NCBI GenBank assembly: GCA_016872875.1
Contig: VGYW01000156.1
Span: forward strand, 1-17,582
Direction: 5' to 3'
Length of the DNA: 17,582 nucleotides
Origin: Planctomycetota bacterium
Lineage (GTDB): Bacteria; Planctomycetota; PUPC01; DSUN01
The notes under the pieces are model-generated. The model was not told the origin of the DNA. It was given only the letters and a program-made list of their open reading frames with translations, and made no database searches. A program made the position numbers and the translations under genes. Position 1 is the stretch's first letter; each line of letters opens with the position of its first letter. Shown piece after piece: positions 2,640-16,146 of the stretch.

Positions 2640-3230
2640 ATGAGACGATGGCGTTGGTTTGGCGTCGCGATGGCGCTGGCCATTGCGGCTGCGCTCTGCC
2701 CCACGGGCTGGGCCGGCGAGGACGAGGAGAAGAAGCCCGAGCGGAGGCCCGACGTCCACTTCGTCCCCACCCCGCACGAGGTCGTGGAGGTCATGCTGCG
2801 GCTGGCCGAAGTGAAGAAGGACGACATCACGTACGACCTGGGCTGCGGCGACGGCCGCATCGTCATCGCCGCCGCAAAGAAGGCCGGCTGCAAGGCCACG
2901 GGCTACGACATTGACCCCGCCCGCGTCAAGGAATCGCTCGAAAACGTCAAGAAGGAGAAGGTCGAAGACCTCGTCACCATCGAGGAGAAGGACATCTTCA
3001 CCCTCGACCTCACCAAGGCGAGCGTCATCACCCTCTACCTGCTGCCGAGCCTCAACGTGAAGCTCATCCCGCAGCTCGAGAAGATGAAGCCCGGCTGCCG
3101 CATCGTCTCCCACGCCTTCGACATGCGCGGCTGCAAGCCCGACGTCGTGGCCACCGTGGCCTGCAAGGACGGCAACGAGCGCAAGGTCTACCTCTGGACC
3201 ACCCCGCTGAATAAGGAAAAGGAGGATTAG
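2640..3230 (+). CDS. Exported class I SAM-methyltransferase-fold protein, copy 1
   Basis: This 196-residue protein has an N-terminal signal peptide: RRWRW, a hydrophobic core to about residue 20, then GWAGE with likely cleavage near residue 25. A compact Rossmann methyltransferase domain follows. Motif I is YDLGCGDGRIVIAAA (65-79) and the acidic SAM-binding loop is GYDIDP (88-93). PTPHEVVEVMLRLA (44-57) is the conserved lead-in seen in a family of small predicted methyltransferases. Export of a SAM-dependent enzyme is odd because SAM is cytosolic; the role may be binding rather than catalysis, or the hydrophobic segment may act as an anchor. The start is ATG 2640 with AAAGGAG at 2625-2631, 8 nt upstream. 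It is followed by a near-identical paralogue, and the ribosome-binding leader AAAGGAGTTGAnAGC is shared by both, so the duplicated unit included the leader. Substrate unknown. Confidence 0.85.
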   Translation: MRRWRWFGVAMALAIAAALCPTGWAGEDEEKKPERRPDVHFVPTPHEVVEVMLRLAEVKKDDITYDLGCGDGRIVIAAAKKAGCKATGYDIDPARVKESLENVKKEKVEDLVTIEEKDIFTLDLTKASVITLYLLPSLNVKLIPQLEKMKPGCRIVSHAFDMRGCKPDVVATVACKDGNERKVYLWTTPLNKEKED

Positions 3231-3244
3231 CGTCTTCGATCGCG

Positions 3245-3271
3245 ACACATGCGCGCTTCGCGCGCATGTGT
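3245..3271 (+). terminator. Perfect 12-bp GC-rich stem-loop after methyltransferase copy 1
   Basis: ACACATGCGCGC, loop TTC, then its exact reverse complement. It begins 14 nt after the stop codon of copy 1, where a terminator would be expected, but it is followed by GGGGG and not a T-run. Intrinsic termination is therefore doubtful; an mRNA 3'-end stabiliser is an alternative. The inner GCGCGCTTCGCGCGC is shared with copy B of the repeat at 15193-15207. Confidence 0.5.
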
Positions 3272-3482
3272 GGGGGATGAATGGATGAATGGATGGATGG
3301 ATGGGTGGATGGATGAGGAAGAGCTGGATGAATGGATGATTGGATGGGTGGATGGATGTCAGAACGACCGACTCTTGCATTCATCCACTCATCCATACAT
3401 CCATTCATCCCGTCTGCGAATCGTCCATCCCTCCACCCATCCAACCATCCTCTTTGGTTGTGGCCACTGGCCGCCTTGGGAT
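3245..3482 (+). repeat. GGATGG/CATCC hairpin element, copy A
   Basis: This intergenic element between the two methyltransferase copies is modular. First comes a perfect 12-bp palindrome with a TTC loop at 3245-3271. A TGGA/ATGG-repeat arm follows (about 3275-3358), then GTCAGA at 3358-3363, then a complementary CATCC-repeat arm (about 3378-3450). A tail with GGCCA..GGCCGC.TTGG.A ends it (3462-3482). TTGGATGGGTGGA (3340-3352) pairs exactly with its reverse complement at 3432-3444. The core, loop and tail recur in the same order at 15193-15317, so this is a dispersed repeat and not a lone microsatellite. It lies 15 bp after a stop codon. Whether it acts as a terminator, RNA stabiliser or miniature mobile element is unknown. 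Confidence 0.85.
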
Positions 3483-3570
3483 TTGTAATCTGGGATTTCC
3501 CAAACCCCGCGCCACGTGCAGAGCGCGGGCCAGGCAATGGCCCTGCCGGGCCAGGAAAGGAGTTGACAGC

Positions 3571-4158
3571 GTGGTAAAGCGGCGTCTGAGTTGGATCTGG
3601 GTCGCGGCGGTGGCCGCCGCCCTGCTCGTCACCGCCGGCTGGGCCGGCGAGGAGGCCAAGGAGGAGCGCAAGCCCGACGTCATCTACGTCCCCACCCCCC
3701 ACGAGGTGGTGGAGGTCATGCTGCGGCTGGCCGACGTGAAGAAGGACGACATCACGTATGACCTGGGCTGCGGCGACGGCCGCATCGTCATCGCCGCCGC
3801 AAAAAAGGCCGGCTGCAAAGCCTGGGGCTACGACATTGACCCCGCCCGCGTCAAGGAGTCCCTCGAAAACGTCAAGAAGGAAAAGGTCGAGGGCCTCGTG
3901 GCCATCGAGCAGAAGGACATCTTCACCCTCGACCTCGCCAAGGCCAGCGTCATCACCCTCTACCTTCTGCCCAGCCTCAACGTCAAGCTCATCCCCCAGC
4001 TCGACAAGATGAAGCCCGGCTGCCGAATCGTCTCCCACGACTTCGACATGAAGGGCGTCAAGCCCGACGTCCTCGCCACCGTCAACAGCAAGGACGGCAC
4101 CGAGCACAAGGTCTACCTCTGGACCACCCCCCTCAGGAAGGAAAAGACCGAGGAGTAG
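3571..4158 (+). CDS. Exported class I SAM-methyltransferase-fold protein, copy 2
   Basis: This is the tandem paralogue of the gene at 2640. It has 195 residues: a signal peptide (KRR, hydrophobic core, GWAGE near residue 26) followed by the same methyltransferase domain with motif I YDLGCGDGRIVIAAA and GYDIDP. By hand count about 18 of some 157 aligned residues of the mature part differ, mostly conservatively, with most change in the signal peptide and near the C-terminus. The start is GTG 3571: AAAGGAG at 3556-3562 has the same 8-nt spacing as in copy 1. The open frame extends upstream through the GGATGG repeat, but that is not coding. A strong intrinsic terminator follows, closing the unit. 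Residue T87 in copy 1 is W next to the SAM loop here, which could alter the pocket. Function is inferred from fold only. Confidence 0.85.
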   Translation: MVKRRLSWIWVAAVAAALLVTAGWAGEEAKEERKPDVIYVPTPHEVVEVMLRLADVKKDDITYDLGCGDGRIVIAAAKKAGCKAWGYDIDPARVKESLENVKKEKVEGLVAIEQKDIFTLDLAKASVITLYLLPSLNVKLIPQLDKMKPGCRIVSHDFDMKGVKPDVLATVNSKDGTEHKVYLWTTPLRKEKTEE

Positions 4159-4311: not shown

Positions 4312-4635
4312 ATGGCTGCTCCCAAGACACTGTCCCGCGACCCAAAGGCCGTGGCCCGGCGACAAATGAGGAAACTGGACCTGGAGCTAAGGGCCTTCGA
4401 GCGGCTGAGGCCGGAGCTGCTCAAGACCCACCCTGGCCTGTTCGTGGCGATCCACCACGGCGCCGTGCTCGCCGCCGACGCGGACGACTTCCGCCTCGCC
4501 GCTCAGGTGGAGGACCTGGCACGCCGTGAAGGACCTATCGCCATCTGTAGAGTATGCGAACACGAGAGAGTTGAGGAGGGGGACGAGCCCTTCGTCCACT
4601 TCGACTCTGTCTACCCGGAGGAGGTGGCTGAGTGA
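4312..4635 (+). CDS. Small DUF5678-like protein upstream of a retropepsin-like protease
   Basis: This is a 107-residue soluble protein. The centre (residues 35-80) reads HPGLFVAIHHGAVLAADADDF, then AAQVEDLARREGP and IAICRV. That layout (aromatic-valine-alanine, a short turn, a helix with A.. E, then a closing strand) resembles the small DUF5678 domain. Such proteins are often encoded next to aspartyl-protease genes, as here; both the family assignment and that pairing are from memory and not verified. The start is ATG 4312 with GGAGG at 4300-4304 and the promoter 37 bp upstream; the longer upstream frame runs into the terminator. The stop overlaps the next start as GTGA, implying translational coupling. 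It could be a substrate, inhibitor or regulator of the protease; no catalytic motif is visible. Confidence 0.75.
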   Translation: MAAPKTLSRDPKAVARRQMRKLDLELRAFERLRPELLKTHPGLFVAIHHGAVLAADADDFRLAAQVEDLARREGPIAICRVCEHERVEEGDEPFVHFDSVYPEEVAE

Positions 4636-6524: not shown

Positions 6525-7805
6525 GTGAGGCGGGAGTTTCGTTATCGAGGGAGTGTTCCTGTGTCAGAGCTTTGGCGGAAGAGCCTTGAACTGCTCCAGA
6601 GGCAGTTCGAGGGTAACAGCCTCAGATACCCAGGGTTGTACTGCATGCTGGTCGAGACATCGGAGAGGAGCCGCGATAGGCTGGAAGGACCACCGCCCGC
6701 TCTCTGGCGAGGCGATAGCCCTGAGATCGCCTTTAGCACCATGGGGATCACAGGCCCTGACGTACGGCCATTGACGCCAGAAGAGGTGGAGCAGGCCAAC
6801 AGGGGCCAGCCCGGGGAAGACTTCCTCTATGCGGCATCTGACGGAAAGGAACGGGAACTGTTGGGCGTGCGTGTGCCGGCCGTGATCCGGACGTCACACT
6901 TCTGGGGGGATTCGGAGGCTCGTCGGCACTTCAAGTCGCTAAGCGCTGGCGCCTGGCAGACTATGCTCGCGGCGCCACCACATGTGCGAGCACTGCTTCC
7001 GGGCGAGTTGATCGAGCCAGAGCTATTCAGGTGGAGGCGAACTCCATCTGGTGGACTATTTGGCATTCCTTCGCCGGGGCCTCCGCCACCTCCCGATTGC
7101 TGGCTCAGGGCTGTGTACCACCTAGCTTGGCAGGAGCCAGCGGGGGTGCCTTTGCGAGCTCCTCGCTGCATATGGCAAGGCAATGGTTCCCTACCATTTG
7201 ATCCAGTGCAACTGAAGGCGATCCACGAGAGCATGGGGATCGAGGTCCCCGTGGCCCCCGATTACTTCTACAGCATTCTCGGCGAGAACGACAATCCGCA
7301 GGACATATCCCTATCGTCGGCCTTCGCGCTCATGCTTCTGTTGGACGCGGAACGAGCTGGTTCACGCGGTGCCCCACGTGAGTTTGACGTCTTCATCGCC
7401 TACAATAGCGAGGACAAGCAACAAGTCATGGAGGTGGTCAGCCAACTGAAACGCCGGAAGGTCAGACCCTGGATTGACGAGGAGCAGGTGCCCCCCGGCA
7501 CGGCTTTCCAAGATTCGATCCAACAGGCTATCACAAAGGTCAGGTCAGCCGCGGTGTTCCTGGGGCCTAAGGGGCCAGGCAAGTGGCAGACGGCCGAAGT
7601 GCGAACTCTCATGACCCAGTGCACTCAACGTGGAATGAGCCTGATCCCGGTGCTACTGCCAGGCGCGAGCAGCCCCCCGGAACAATGGCTATTCCTGAAG
7701 GAGTTGAACTGGGTCCGGTTCATGAAATCGCTCGATGAGACGAGCGCGCTGGATAGGTTGGAGTGGGGCATCACGGGCGAGAAGCGCTACGTGGAAGGGG
7801 ATTGA
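6525..7805 (+). CDS. TIR-domain protein with uncharacterised N-terminal domain
   Basis: A 426-residue soluble protein with a C-terminal TIR domain at about 286-415. It shows the first strand FDVFIAYNSEDK (287-298), the helix and turn WIDEEQVPPGTAF (316-328), and SAAVFLGPKGPGKWQTAEVR (341-360). E358 sits at the position of the catalytic glutamate of NAD-hydrolysing TIRs. Bacterial TIR proteins are often anti-phage effectors that deplete NAD; that role here is inferred. Residues 1-280 are not recognised; a tryptophan- and proline-rich stretch lies at 140-195. The start is GTG 6525, the first possible start after an in-frame stop at 6495, with GAAGGG at 6511-6516 as a modest ribosome-binding site. 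G+C and codon third positions look lower than in neighbouring genes, which suggests recent acquisition. No promoter was seen, and no obvious Thoeris or SIR2 partner is adjacent. Confidence 0.85.
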   Translation: MRREFRYRGSVPVSELWRKSLELLQRQFEGNSLRYPGLYCMLVETSERSRDRLEGPPPALWRGDSPEIAFSTMGITGPDVRPLTPEEVEQANRGQPGEDFLYAASDGKERELLGVRVPAVIRTSHFWGDSEARRHFKSLSAGAWQTMLAAPPHVRALLPGELIEPELFRWRRTPSGGLFGIPSPGPPPPPDCWLRAVYHLAWQEPAGVPLRAPRCIWQGNGSLPFDPVQLKAIHESMGIEVPVAPDYFYSILGENDNPQDISLSSAFALMLLLDAERAGSRGAPREFDVFIAYNSEDKQQVMEVVSQLKRRKVRPWIDEEQVPPGTAFQDSIQQAITKVRSAAVFLGPKGPGKWQTAEVRTLMTQCTQRGMSLIPVLLPGASSPPEQWLFLKELNWVRFMKSLDETSALDRLEWGITGEKRYVEGD

Positions 7806-10825: not shown

Positions 10826-11815
10826 GTGTGCCGGGAACATCGGCGGGTCGCCATCGTGAAGCGCGCGTATCCAACGGTTGACGGGGCGCTGGAGTGCGTT
10901 GTTCGGGAGGTCGAGTGCGCCTCCGGCCCGCCGGTGCGCTACGAGGTCTACCTTGACGACGCGCTGCGATGGCTCGACCGCGCGGAACCAGACTCTATCC
11001 ACGCGGTTGTCACCGATCCGCCCTACGGGGTGCTGGAGTACACGCCCAAAGAGCTGGAGAAGATGAGGAATGGGCGCGGCGGCGTGTGGCGAATTCCACC
11101 GGCGTACGATGGTTGTCAACGCCGCCCCCTTCCGCGGTTCACGGTTCTCCAGGATGAGGACAAGCAGAAGATCCGCGCGCTCTTCCACGGGCTTGCTGAG
11201 CGGCTGATGCGAGTGCTCGTTCCCGGCGCGCACATCTTCGTCGCCACCAATCCGCTCCTGTCCTACCTTGTGTACGAGCCGCTTGTGGCCGCAGGATTTG
11301 AGAAGCGTGGCGAGGTCATCCGGGAAGTGATGACTTTGCGCGGAGGGGACCGCCCCAAGAATGCCCACAGGGAGTTCCCTGAGGTCACGGTGATGCCGAG
11401 GTCCTGCTGGGAGCCCTGGGGTCTTTTCCGCAAGCCTTGCGAGGGGCGGGTGCAGGATAACCTGCGGAAGTGGAAGACCGGCGGGCTGCGGCGCGTGTCC
11501 CCTGCCGAGCCCTTCAAGGACCTGATTCGCTCGTCGCCTGCGAGGGGACTAGAGCGCGAGGTCGCCCCTCACCCTTCGCTCAAGCCCCAACATTTCCTGC
11601 GGCACATCGTCAGGGCCGCGCTGCCCCTGGGCGAAGGGGTGATCCTGGACCCCTTCATGGGCTCGGGCTCGACCATCGCCGCCGCGATCGCCTGCGGATA
11701 CAGGAGCATTGGCATCGAACTGAACCCGGAGTACTTCGTGATGGCCTTGGAGTGCATCCCCAAGCTGGCGGCGCTTCAGCCCTCGGAGCCGAACGGCAAT
11801 GGCGCGAAAAGATGA
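10826..11815 (+). CDS. DNA adenine/cytosine-N4 methyltransferase (beta-class order)
   Basis: A 329-residue site-specific DNA methyltransferase. Motif IV, DPPYG (64-68), comes first; a long middle stretch (about 75-245) is the probable target-recognition region; HPSLKP (249-254) and the SAM-binding motif I DPFMGSGST (275-283) come last, followed by GIELNPEY (296-303). That order is the beta class, and DPPY is compatible with N6-adenine or N4-cytosine methylation. The start is uncertain: GTG 10826 is the longest, while GTG 10856 (giving MKRAYPTVDG) has a more normal leader relative to the promoter at 10783-10811. It overlaps the next gene by 17 bp, so the two are translationally coupled. The methylated base protects against the downstream nuclease if the pair is a type II system, as I infer; an orphan regulatory methylase is the alternative. 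Confidence 0.9.
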   Translation: MCREHRRVAIVKRAYPTVDGALECVVREVECASGPPVRYEVYLDDALRWLDRAEPDSIHAVVTDPPYGVLEYTPKELEKMRNGRGGVWRIPPAYDGCQRRPLPRFTVLQDEDKQKIRALFHGLAERLMRVLVPGAHIFVATNPLLSYLVYEPLVAAGFEKRGEVIREVMTLRGGDRPKNAHREFPEVTVMPRSCWEPWGLFRKPCEGRVQDNLRKWKTGGLRRVSPAEPFKDLIRSSPARGLEREVAPHPSLKPQHFLRHIVRAALPLGEGVILDPFMGSGSTIAAAIACGYRSIGIELNPEYFVMALECIPKLAALQPSEPNGNGAKR

Positions 11816-15192: not shown

Positions 15193-15317
15193 GCGCGCTT
15201 CGCGCGCCTGCAGGGGATGGATGGGTGCTTGGATGGGTGGATGGGTGTCAGACAGTCATCCATTCATCCACCCATCCAATCATCCCCTCTTGCTGCGGCC
15301 AACGGCCGCTTTGGAAC
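15193..15317 (+). repeat. GGATGG/CATCC hairpin element, copy B
   Basis: The second copy of the element at 3245-3482, shorter and in the same orientation, again between a stop codon and a downstream plus-strand gene. GCGCGCTTCGCGCGC lies at 15193-15207, a GGATGG arm at 15212-15247, GTCAGA at 15247-15252, a CATCC arm at 15257-15288, and the tail GGCCA..GGCCGC.TTGG.A at 15298-15317. TTGGATGGGTGGATG (15229-15243) pairs exactly with 15265-15279, and the same 15-mer occurs in copy A at 3340-3354. The last about 37 nt align to copy A without gaps, with about 27 matches by hand. Confidence 0.85.
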
Positions 15318-15336
15318 AGGCTCAGGAGAGTTATCC

Positions 15337-16146
15337 ATGTTCGGCTGGCTATTCGGCGGGAAGAAGAAGAAGAAACCCAGCGGCCCGGAGCCGGAGCGCG
15401 CGGCGCACGCGGCGCACGCGGCCAAGCAGGCCCCCGCGCCCGCGGCTCCGGCGGCGCCGGCCGCGCCGGCCCCCAAGCCCATCGCCGCCGCCGAGGCGGC
15501 GCGCGGCCGCACAGCCGACGACGTCTTGCGCGAGCTTGAGGGCCAGGTGGCCCCCGAGCCCGCCGAGGAGGCGGCTCCCGAGGCCCCCGTTGACCCCAAC
15601 CTCGGGCGGCACCTCCTGGCCGAAGGCCCCGTCACCCGCGAGTTCATCCAGCAACAGCTCACCGTGAGCGGCAAGGCCGACTCCTACCTGGGCCACATCC
15701 TCGCCCGCGTGCGCGCGCCCGCCGAGGCGAAGCTCTACAGGCTCCTCGCGGGCGGCTACGAGATGCCGCAGGTGGACCTCAAGCAGTGCAAGATACCAAT
15801 GGCGGTCGCTCGCTCCGTGCCCGCGGACACGCTGCGGAAGTATAAGATGCTGCCCATCGAGCAGATAGGCGACCTGTTGTGCGTGGCCTTCTCGGGCGAG
15901 CCGAACCCGAAGGCCGCCGAGGCCATTCGCAAGGCCACGGGCCTCCGCGTCAAGGCCCTTGGCTGCCCGCCGCACCACATCGAAATCCTCCTCCGCCGCC
16001 TCCTCCGCGAGGTCGCCGTCGCCCAGGTCGTCGCCGCCGTCCCCATCCCCGAGGCCGACTACGACGAGGCCCTCCGCGGCCCCGAGCCGCGCTGGGAGAG
16101 CATCCACGCCTCCCGTGGCCCGTTGCGCGCGGTGCGCCTCGCCTGA
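15337..16146 (+). CDS. Stand-alone MshEN (type II secretion GspE N-terminal) domain protein
   Basis: A 269-residue protein. It starts with a short hydrophobic/aromatic head MFGWLFGG followed by a lysine run (GKKKKKP), which could bind membrane. An alanine/proline linker (20-88) follows, then the bipartite GspE/PilB N-terminal domain: LGRHLLAEGPVTREFIQQQL (89-108) with LGHILARVRA, then PQVDL and VPADTLRKYKMLPIEQIGDLLCVAFS (161-186), and ATGLRVKALGCPPHHIEILL (200-219). In secretion and pilus ATPases this domain precedes the motor and in some binds c-di-GMP; here the ATPase is absent and I do not see a clear c-di-GMP signature. Free-standing versions occur in bacteria as regulators. The start is ATG 15337 with AGGAGAG at 15324-15330. 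It sits between the STAND-TPR and REC-HATPase genes, suggesting a common signalling task. Confidence 0.8.
   Translation: MFGWLFGGKKKKKPSGPEPERAAHAAHAAKQAPAPAAPAAPAAPAPKPIAAAEAARGRTADDVLRELEGQVAPEPAEEAAPEAPVDPNLGRHLLAEGPVTREFIQQQLTVSGKADSYLGHILARVRAPAEAKLYRLLAGGYEMPQVDLKQCKIPMAVARSVPADTLRKYKMLPIEQIGDLLCVAFSGEPNPKAAEAIRKATGLRVKALGCPPHHIEILLRRLLREVAVAQVVAAVPIPEADYDEALRGPEPRWESIHASRGPLRAVRLA

What the first reader, a model, noticed from the sequence alone, without database searches (positions are those of the whole stretch)
3245..3482. GGATGG/CATCC structured element, copy A, with conserved modules
This intergenic sequence has five ordered parts: a perfect GC palindrome, a G-rich tetranucleotide arm, a GTCAGA loop, a complementary C-rich arm and a GGCCA..GGCCGC tail. 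All recur in the same order 12 kb away. A plain microsatellite would not share the loop and both flanks. It would fold into a very long RNA or DNA hairpin directly after a stop codon. It may be an undescribed miniature mobile repeat or a structured 3'-UTR/terminator class.
Basis: partly seen in the sequence, partly recalled or inferred. Interest (0 to 1): 0.72.

Follow-up and report, generated by a model that had tools for sequence, protein, structure and literature searches.

The report
Mobile hairpin repeat at stop codons
A hairpin made of GGATG repeats, found just after a gene in an uncultured planctomycete, belongs to a dispersed family of mobile-looking hairpins whose larger relatives frame two kinds of small protein gene, which may link scattered bacterial repeats to the known inserts in ribosomal RNA genes.

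Summary
Both copies (3245-3478; 15193-15314) hold a GC palindrome, GGATGNNT arms, a TGTCAGA tip, CATCC arms and a GGCC tail, and fold far better than shuffles. Arms and tip are the family. Order-level relative G545 holds 543 exact matches to three arm units, G559 24; of 292 other sampled Planctomycetota genomes one has any (2). Of 39 G545 hairpins 28 keep the tip, 2 the tail, 0 the palindrome. A 71-nt subfamily that includes copy B is 87-96% identical at six loci with unrelated flanks, and copy B's site is empty in G545: a dispersed, mobile-like repeat. Hairpins sit at the upstream stop codon. One G545 arm pair frames a four-helix-bundle gene (PF05635, the protein of 23S rRNA intervening sequences). 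Inverted arms, mostly of 7-8-nt tandem units that differ between loci, frame such genes in 40 of 48 Planctomycetota loci (controls 7 of 153) and 11 of 12 plasmid loci of three other phyla; GxxExxY genes in 15 of 22. I read the window element as the ORF-less form of this class. Movement by these proteins is inferred, not shown.

The parts
3245..3271 (+). copy A: perfect GC palindrome (12-bp stem, TTC loop); a neighbour of the element, not found at relatives' copies
   Evidence: read; 0 of 39 G545 hairpins have the core palindrome within 60 nt
3275..3358 (+). copy A: left arm, GGATGNNT units in two blocks (3275-3315, 3326-3358)
   Evidence: tandem and inverted repeats
3357..3377 (+). copy A: tip, begins TGTCAGA
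   Evidence: TGYCAG/CTGRCA tip in 28 of 39 G545 hairpins
3378..3450 (+). copy A: right arm, CATCC units in two blocks (3378-3410, 3426-3450)
   Evidence: inverted pairs I2, I3, I13, I14; fold
3451..3478 (+). copy A: tail with GGCCACTGGCCGC; separate repeated module
   Evidence: family D11; next to 2 of 39 G545 hairpins and also without a hairpin
15193..15207 (+). copy B: GC palindrome core GCGCGCTTCGCGCGC
15215..15247 (+). copy B: left arm
15246..15256 (+). copy B: tip, begins TGTCAGA
15257..15285 (+). copy B: right arm; 15215-15285 belongs to a 71-nt subfamily shared with G545
15286..15314 (+). copy B: tail with GGCCAACGGCCGC

Best explanation
The element is an ORF-less ('solo') copy of a dispersed hairpin: two inverted arms of a short tandem repeat (unit GGATGNNT) around a TGYCAG tip, inserted at the 3' end of a gene beside its stop codon. 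It belongs to a wider class in which the architecture is kept (inverted arms of mostly 7-8-nt tandem units, at stop codons in gene strings) while the unit differs between loci and lineages. Larger members carry one small gene between the arms: a four-helix-bundle S23/IVP protein (PF05635/TIGR02436) or a GxxExxY protein (TIGR04256). I propose, as inference, that these proteins or an enzyme that they recruit move arm-bearing elements, and that solo hairpins spread in trans like MITEs. In mRNA the hairpin should act as an intercistronic double-stranded stem, probably an RNase III substrate as in 23S rRNA intervening sequences. Shown: copy number, copies in different flanks, the empty junction, stop-codon position, cargo framing, units shared between solo hairpins and IVP arms in one genome. 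Inferred: movement itself, the protein that drives it, RNA processing.
For: Copy number limited to one order; 71-nt subfamily 87-96% identical at six loci including window copy B, flanks 0.43-0.60 against a random mean of 0.49; junction of copy B 171 nt in the window and 25 nt in G545; hairpin a median 8 nt from the stop and 17 of 24 in residual gaps of 60 nt or less, which hold 3.6% of co-directional intergenic bases; GGATGNNT arms around a PF05635 gene; inverted arms at 40 of 48 PF05635 genes against 7 of 153 controls, tandem units in at least one arm of 36 of these 40 against 16 of 153 control alignments; 11 of 12 plasmid loci; 15 of 22 GxxExxY genes; 8 of 10 G545 IVP loci match the genome's solo families on at least one side, 4 on both.
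Against: No transposition, target duplication or nucleotide-alignable pre-insertion allele was seen. Only 1 of 13 G545 PF05635 hits has GGATGNNT arms on both sides. G559 has the hairpins but no PF05635 hit over the cut-off. 8 of 48 IVP and 7 of 22 GxxExxY loci miss the threshold. No sense-strand preference in G545 and no compensatory match between arms of one element.
Confidence: 0.6

Rival explanations
1. A host-owned structured 3'-UTR: a terminator, insulator or mRNA stabiliser kept by selection after stop codons, not a mobile element.
For: Hairpins lie at stop codons, 74 of 77 outside predicted genes; very stable folds; both window copies fold better as sense RNA (-108.0 against -95.2 and -57.8 against -46.8 kcal/mol).
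Against: No strand preference in 34 G545 hairpins; no T-run after the stem; in gene strings the next start follows at a median 24.5 nt, so full termination would silence it; copies are near identical with unrelated flanks; orthologous junction without hairpin.
Confidence: 0.15
2. A REP-type palindrome moved by a RAYT / Y1 tyrosine transposase.
For: G545 has 19 and G559 4 Y1_Tnp matches; REPs are intergenic palindromes tied to RAYTs (PMC3733652, passages).
Against: Of 11 G545/G559 Y1 loci read, none has a GGATGNNT hairpin; L395 has a lone short CATCC arm. Three G545 Y1 genes have other palindromes of their own. Arms are tandem octamers without a GTAG tag.
Confidence: 0.1
3. Local slippage and template switching that make quasi-palindromic microsatellites again and again.
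For: Unit number and NN letters vary; arms of one element agree less than arms of different elements; many unit families in one genome.
Against: Same unit at many loci of one order and hardly elsewhere; homology that stops at the hairpin edge; tie to two protein families; enrichment in tight rather than long gaps.
Confidence: 0.1

Closest known systems
23S rRNA intervening sequences (IVS) with an S23/IVP ORF (PMC4990558, abstract and passages)
   Same: One small PF05635-type ORF inside an inverted stem; the Coxiella IVS has a 28-bp stem and tandem GACAGAT heptamers before the ORF; mobility has been proposed there.
   Different: Here the sites are intergenic, at stop codons; most copies have no ORF; the window unit is an octamer, GGATGNNT.
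Dispersed heptamer repeats: GGGAATC in Xanthomonas and GGGGA(C/T)T in Nostoc (PMC4692102), TAACTGA in Beggiatoaceae (PMC4679880); abstracts and passages
   Same: Short tandem units in many intergenic copies, between aligned ORFs and near stop codons (Xanthomonas); 70 and 75 inverted pairs in two Xanthomonas genomes.
   Different: Those passages report no protein partner of the S23/IVP or GxxExxY kind; TAACTGA sets are direct and lie mostly before start codons.
REP/RAYT palindromes (PMC3733652, passages)
   Same: Short, high-copy intergenic palindromes without a gene of their own.
   Different: Arms are tandem octamers without GTAG tag; no Y1 transposase gene lies beside the hairpins read here.
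MITEs
   Same: Short ORF-less inverted-repeat elements with ORF-bearing relatives.
   Different: Target duplication not shown; arms are tandem repeats whose unit changes between lineages; cargo genes are not known transposases.

Membership tests
IVP/S23-framing inverted tandem-repeat elements (class proposed here) | inverted arms of short tandem units | tested here: met
IVP/S23-framing inverted tandem-repeat elements (class proposed here) | same unit frames a PF05635 gene in a relative | tested here: met
   L301 in G545, one of 13 hits
IVP/S23-framing inverted tandem-repeat elements (class proposed here) | an ORF between the arms | tested here: not met
   the tip of either window copy is about 20 nt or less; hence 'ORF-less form'
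23S rRNA intervening sequence | insertion in a 23S rRNA helix | tested here: not met
   lies between protein genes; Rfam found no rRNA in the window
23S rRNA intervening sequence | excision by RNase III | not testable with these tools
   needs RNA
REP (RAYT) | GTAG or like tag beside a short palindrome | tested here: not met
   arms are GGATGNNT units; no tag seen by reading
REP (RAYT) | linked Y1 transposase flanked by the same repeat | tested here: not met
   11 Y1 loci of G545/G559 read, none with the hairpin; not all 23 matches were read
MITE | high copy number, copies in unrelated flanks, no ORF | tested here: met
MITE | target-site duplication | tested here: inconclusive
   flanks were printed and read by eye, no formal test; no close pre-insertion allele at hand
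Intrinsic terminator | T-run directly after the stem | tested here: not met
   stems are followed by TCTTTGG (A) and CCTCTTGC (B), read; the terminator scan tool was not run

The most novel reading that the evidence does not exclude
Many phyla share one class of minimal mobile element defined by architecture and not by sequence: inverted arms of 7-10-nt tandem units that insert at stop codons, carrying an S23/IVP four-helix-bundle gene, a GxxExxY gene or nothing. rRNA intervening sequences and the dispersed heptamer repeats of Xanthomonas and Nostoc would be the special cases found first, and the window element a solo member. The element would remake its own arms, which would explain why the unit changes freely while the inverted tandem design stays.
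Probability: 0.45. Interest if true: 0.87.

Novelty: new variant of a known kind. Interest (0 to 1): 0.7.

Why it matters
The biological role of rRNA intervening sequences and of the S23 protein is described as unknown, and their origin as unclear, in PMC4990558 (passages). A shared frame of inverted tandem arms at stop codons gives S23/IVP and GxxExxY genes a testable setting and ties them to abundant unexplained intergenic repeats. It also means that part of the 'microsatellite' load of such genomes may be mobile DNA that feeds RNA hairpins into gene strings.

Tried and rejected
Plain microsatellite or chance: rejected by tip motif, order restriction and edge-limited homology. Five-module family: rejected, palindrome 0 of 39, tail 2 of 39. 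RNA-level selection by strand asymmetry: no effect in 34 G545 hairpins. Compensatory change between arms: opposite sign (within 1.68 against between 1.89 matches of 3, n = 34 elements; permutation p 0.99). Shared CAGR tip across unit families: 33 of 154 arm ends against 16 in outside windows, largest excess in AATCCGT (12 of 16 against 1); not pressed. RAYT partner: not found. Reverse transcriptase partner: 3 RVT_1 hits in G545, 0 in G559; not informative. Rfam: nothing at gathering score.

Flawed steps of my own: one search assumed that all loci were turned to the hit strand, which is false for minus-strand hits; rechecked. One search used other loci's flanks as control, which can share arms with the query; by that control 0 of 29 loci passed; not used. 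One search lost 28 of 51 loci (26 by the strand error, 2 by short flanks); one search replaces it and drops 3 of 51 (L438, L429, L433). The 51 are 21 of 30 loci (those over the family cut-off) plus all 30. One search took 25 of 30 loci and dropped 3 (L503, L504, L509). The IVP stop distances use the 40 significant loci and pick the stop nearest to the arm, which favours small values. The 77 hairpins come from 80 G545 loci, 20 of them fetched because they held pattern hits. The backward control pattern is not silent: G418 35+21, G567 12+0, G649 7+0, G625 0+1.

Paper searches (10 of 10) listed no paper whose title or abstract describes inverted tandem arms around S23/IVP or GxxExxY genes outside rRNA. 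The library is open-access PMC; listed papers other than the seven opened were seen as listings only, and of the seven only passages.

Full report
What is in the window. The window is 68% G+C and its closest named protein relatives are Planctomycetota. Copy A fills the space between two tandem methyltransferase genes; copy B lies between a TPR gene and an MshEN-domain gene. Both show, in order, a GC palindrome with the shared core GCGCGCTTCGCGCGC, GGATGNNT arms, a TGTCAGA tip, CATCC arms and a GGCC tail. Both fold far below shuffled sequence. Rfam gave no match.

Finding relatives. No genome is held for the window. A protein family with 33 listed relatives (the gene after copy B) was sought in 392 Planctomycetota genomes and rang in two: G545 (8.9 Mb, E 2e-124) and, weaker, G445. 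The order of G545 has two held genomes, G545 and G559, its class nine. The pattern of three GGATGNNT units, up to one mismatch, occurs 351+368 times in G545, 28+27 in G559, once in G531 and not in nine others; the backward control gave one hit in all. Without mismatches it rings in 3 of 294 sampled Planctomycetota genomes: G545 252+291, G559 12+12, G440 2+0. At three to four overlapping matches per hairpin this is of the order of 150-200 hairpins in G545 (my estimate).

A dispersed repeat. In 1.35 Mb of G545 (80 stretches) I read 39 GGATG hairpins outside predicted genes. Tip motif 28 of 39, tail 2 of 39, GC palindrome 0 of 39; none of 7 G559 hairpins has the tip. Six 71-nt elements (L299, L302, L311, L312, L366 and window copy B) are 87-96% identical; the 60-nt flanks of the 14 listed pairs stay at 0.43-0.60, against a random mean of 0.49 and 95th percentile of 0.54, which 9 of the 28 flank values pass slightly. 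The junction that holds copy B in the window (171 nt) is 25 nt long in G545; that the gene before it is the same TPR gene I judge by eye. Copies that share the element and little else, and an empty junction, are the marks of a moved sequence. Movement itself was not observed.

Position. Distances rest on a codon-usage gene finder of mine. Between co-directional genes the GGATGNNT hairpin starts a median 8 nt from the stop codon (20 of 24 within 25 nt) and ends a median 24.5 nt before the next start; the other families without TCGTCC give 9 and 27.5 nt, 20 of 28 within 25 nt. 17 of 24 lie in residual gaps of 60 nt or less, which hold 3.6% of co-directional intergenic bases. In 13 of the 39 the ORF ends inside the arm, 11 times 6 nt in, which is the TGA of the first GGATGA, and twice 14 nt in; a random phase would not favour one so strongly. 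The tilt to co-directional neighbours over all tandem-arm hairpins is modest: 62 of 72 with both neighbours known, against 711 of 913 background gaps.

More unit families in one genome. A de novo scan for inverted repeats with periodic arms found 77 solo hairpins in the 80 G545 stretches: GGATGNNT 30, TCGTCC 14, TGACGCG 9, AATCCGT 8, AAGGGACCC 4, five families of one or two, and 5 unclassed; 3 of 77 lie inside predicted genes. The TCGTCC family behaves differently (median residual gap 157 nt, 3 of 10 within 25 nt of a stop) and may be unrelated.

Cargo. In L301 (G545) GGATGNNT arms at 4033-4071 and 4556-4594 frame an ORF that matches PF05635 (E 1.4e-15) and TIGR02436, 'four helix bundle protein'. 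Of 13 PF05635 hits in G545 it is the only one with such arms on both sides; L449 has a lone G arm. Most others are framed by inverted arms of other units: 7 of 10 tested G545 loci pass p <= 0.01. Over all, with 200 dinucleotide shuffles per locus and p <= 0.01, inverted arms frame 13 of 18 PF05635 genes in G545 and its class and 27 of 30 of a phylum-wide set, against 7 of 153 G545 control genes of 300-600 nt (3 of 51 loci dropped). The phylum-wide set is the 30 best-scoring loci of 392 genomes, 183 of which have the gene at E <= 1e-10. Of the 40 significant loci, 36 have a clear tandem unit (24-nt stretch, 75% self-match at a shift of 6-10) in at least one arm and 31 in both, nearly always with period 7 or 8 (62 of 67 arms); the best inverted alignments of the 153 controls have it in 16 and 4. 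On plasmids of Cyanobacteria, Azospirillum and Gemmatirosa 11 of 12 such genes have significant arms, 10 of these 11 with tandem units (12 of 25 records taken, no control genes run there). GxxExxY genes: 15 of 22.

Same niche, shared arms. For the 40 significant Planctomycetota IVP loci, 30 have an upstream co-directional ORF in range and 21 have the left arm within 25 nt of its stop (nearest-stop choice favours small values). On annotated plasmids with arms and a co-directional upstream gene, the left arm starts 22, -1, -11, -9, 260, 26 and 0 nt from the gene end (L482-L488); the right arm of L485 ends at 1563, directly before the next gene at 1564. In G545, flanks of 8 of 10 IVP loci score above the 95th percentile of 120 random windows against the genome's solo families on at least one side, 4 on both. 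In G418 the unit that frames its IVP gene (L453) is the backward control pattern, which rang there 35+21 times: an unplanned replicate.

Results against my reading. Sense and antisense strands fold equally well in G545 (18 against 16 of 34, p 0.89), although both window copies favour sense. Arms of one element agree less than arms of different elements, which fits a penalty on perfect palindromes but not compensatory change. G559 has hairpins without a PF05635 hit above the cut-off; its 2.9 Mb assembly may be incomplete. 8 of 48 IVP and 7 of 22 GxxExxY loci miss the threshold. Controls came from one genome; of the 11 highest control scores three are Y1 transposase genes with palindromes of their own and one is a GxxExxY gene.

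How it most likely works. The hairpins look like ORF-less members of a class whose larger members carry S23/IVP or GxxExxY genes. Since position at stop codons and inverted arms are common to all, I infer that these features matter for insertion or tolerance, and that solo copies are moved in trans. In mRNA the stem should be double-stranded and a likely RNase III target, by analogy with rRNA intervening sequences, where RNase III excision was shown (PMC4990558, abstract and passages). That GxxExxY proteins are nuclease-like is recalled, not tested. The plain alternative for position is selection: in tight gene strings only the stretch between stop codon and ribosome-binding site tolerates an insert; this does not explain the preference for tight over wide gaps.

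What is known. Intervening sequences with S23 ORFs, a 28-bp inverted stem and GACAGAT heptamers (PMC4990558); GGGAATC heptamers with 70 and 75 inverted pairs in two Xanthomonas genomes, between aligned ORFs and near stop codons (PMC4692102, abstract and passages); TAACTGA heptamers (PMC4679880, abstract and passages). The joining of these with IVP and GxxExxY genes and with solo hairpins was not in any title, abstract or passage returned by my ten searches and seven opened papers. Hence: a new variant of a known kind, with a bolder unifying reading left open.

Noticed in passing
window 2640-4158: Two tandem methyltransferase genes, 90% identical over 300 nt, with copy A between them.
   Followed up: no
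window 6525-7805: ORF with a C-terminal TIR domain (PF13676, E 2.7e-19).
   Followed up: no
window 10826-11815: N6/N4 DNA methylase ORF (PF01555, E 2.9e-17).
   Followed up: no
window 15217-16146: An in-frame ATG inside copy B extends the MshEN ORF upstream, so automatic annotation may begin the gene inside the hairpin.
   Followed up: no
L368 near 13638 and L381 near 7450 (G545), minus strand: The tail module TTTGGTTGCGGCCANNGGCCGC recurs without a GGATG hairpin beside it, with a longer shared stretch before it: a separate repeat family.
   Followed up: partly
L343 5602-6071 (G545): GxxExxY gene framed by inverted CACGGATGGG repeats.
   Followed up: yes
L482, L485, L486 (cyanobacterial plasmids): Four-helix-bundle genes sit between cas genes (cas6 and cas4; cas10 and a Cmr3-family gene), framed by inverted arms.
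   Followed up: partly
L348 7033-7949, L373 9745-10722, L384 2825-3799 (G545): Y1-type transposase genes framed by long palindromes of their own that are not tandem arms.
   Followed up: no
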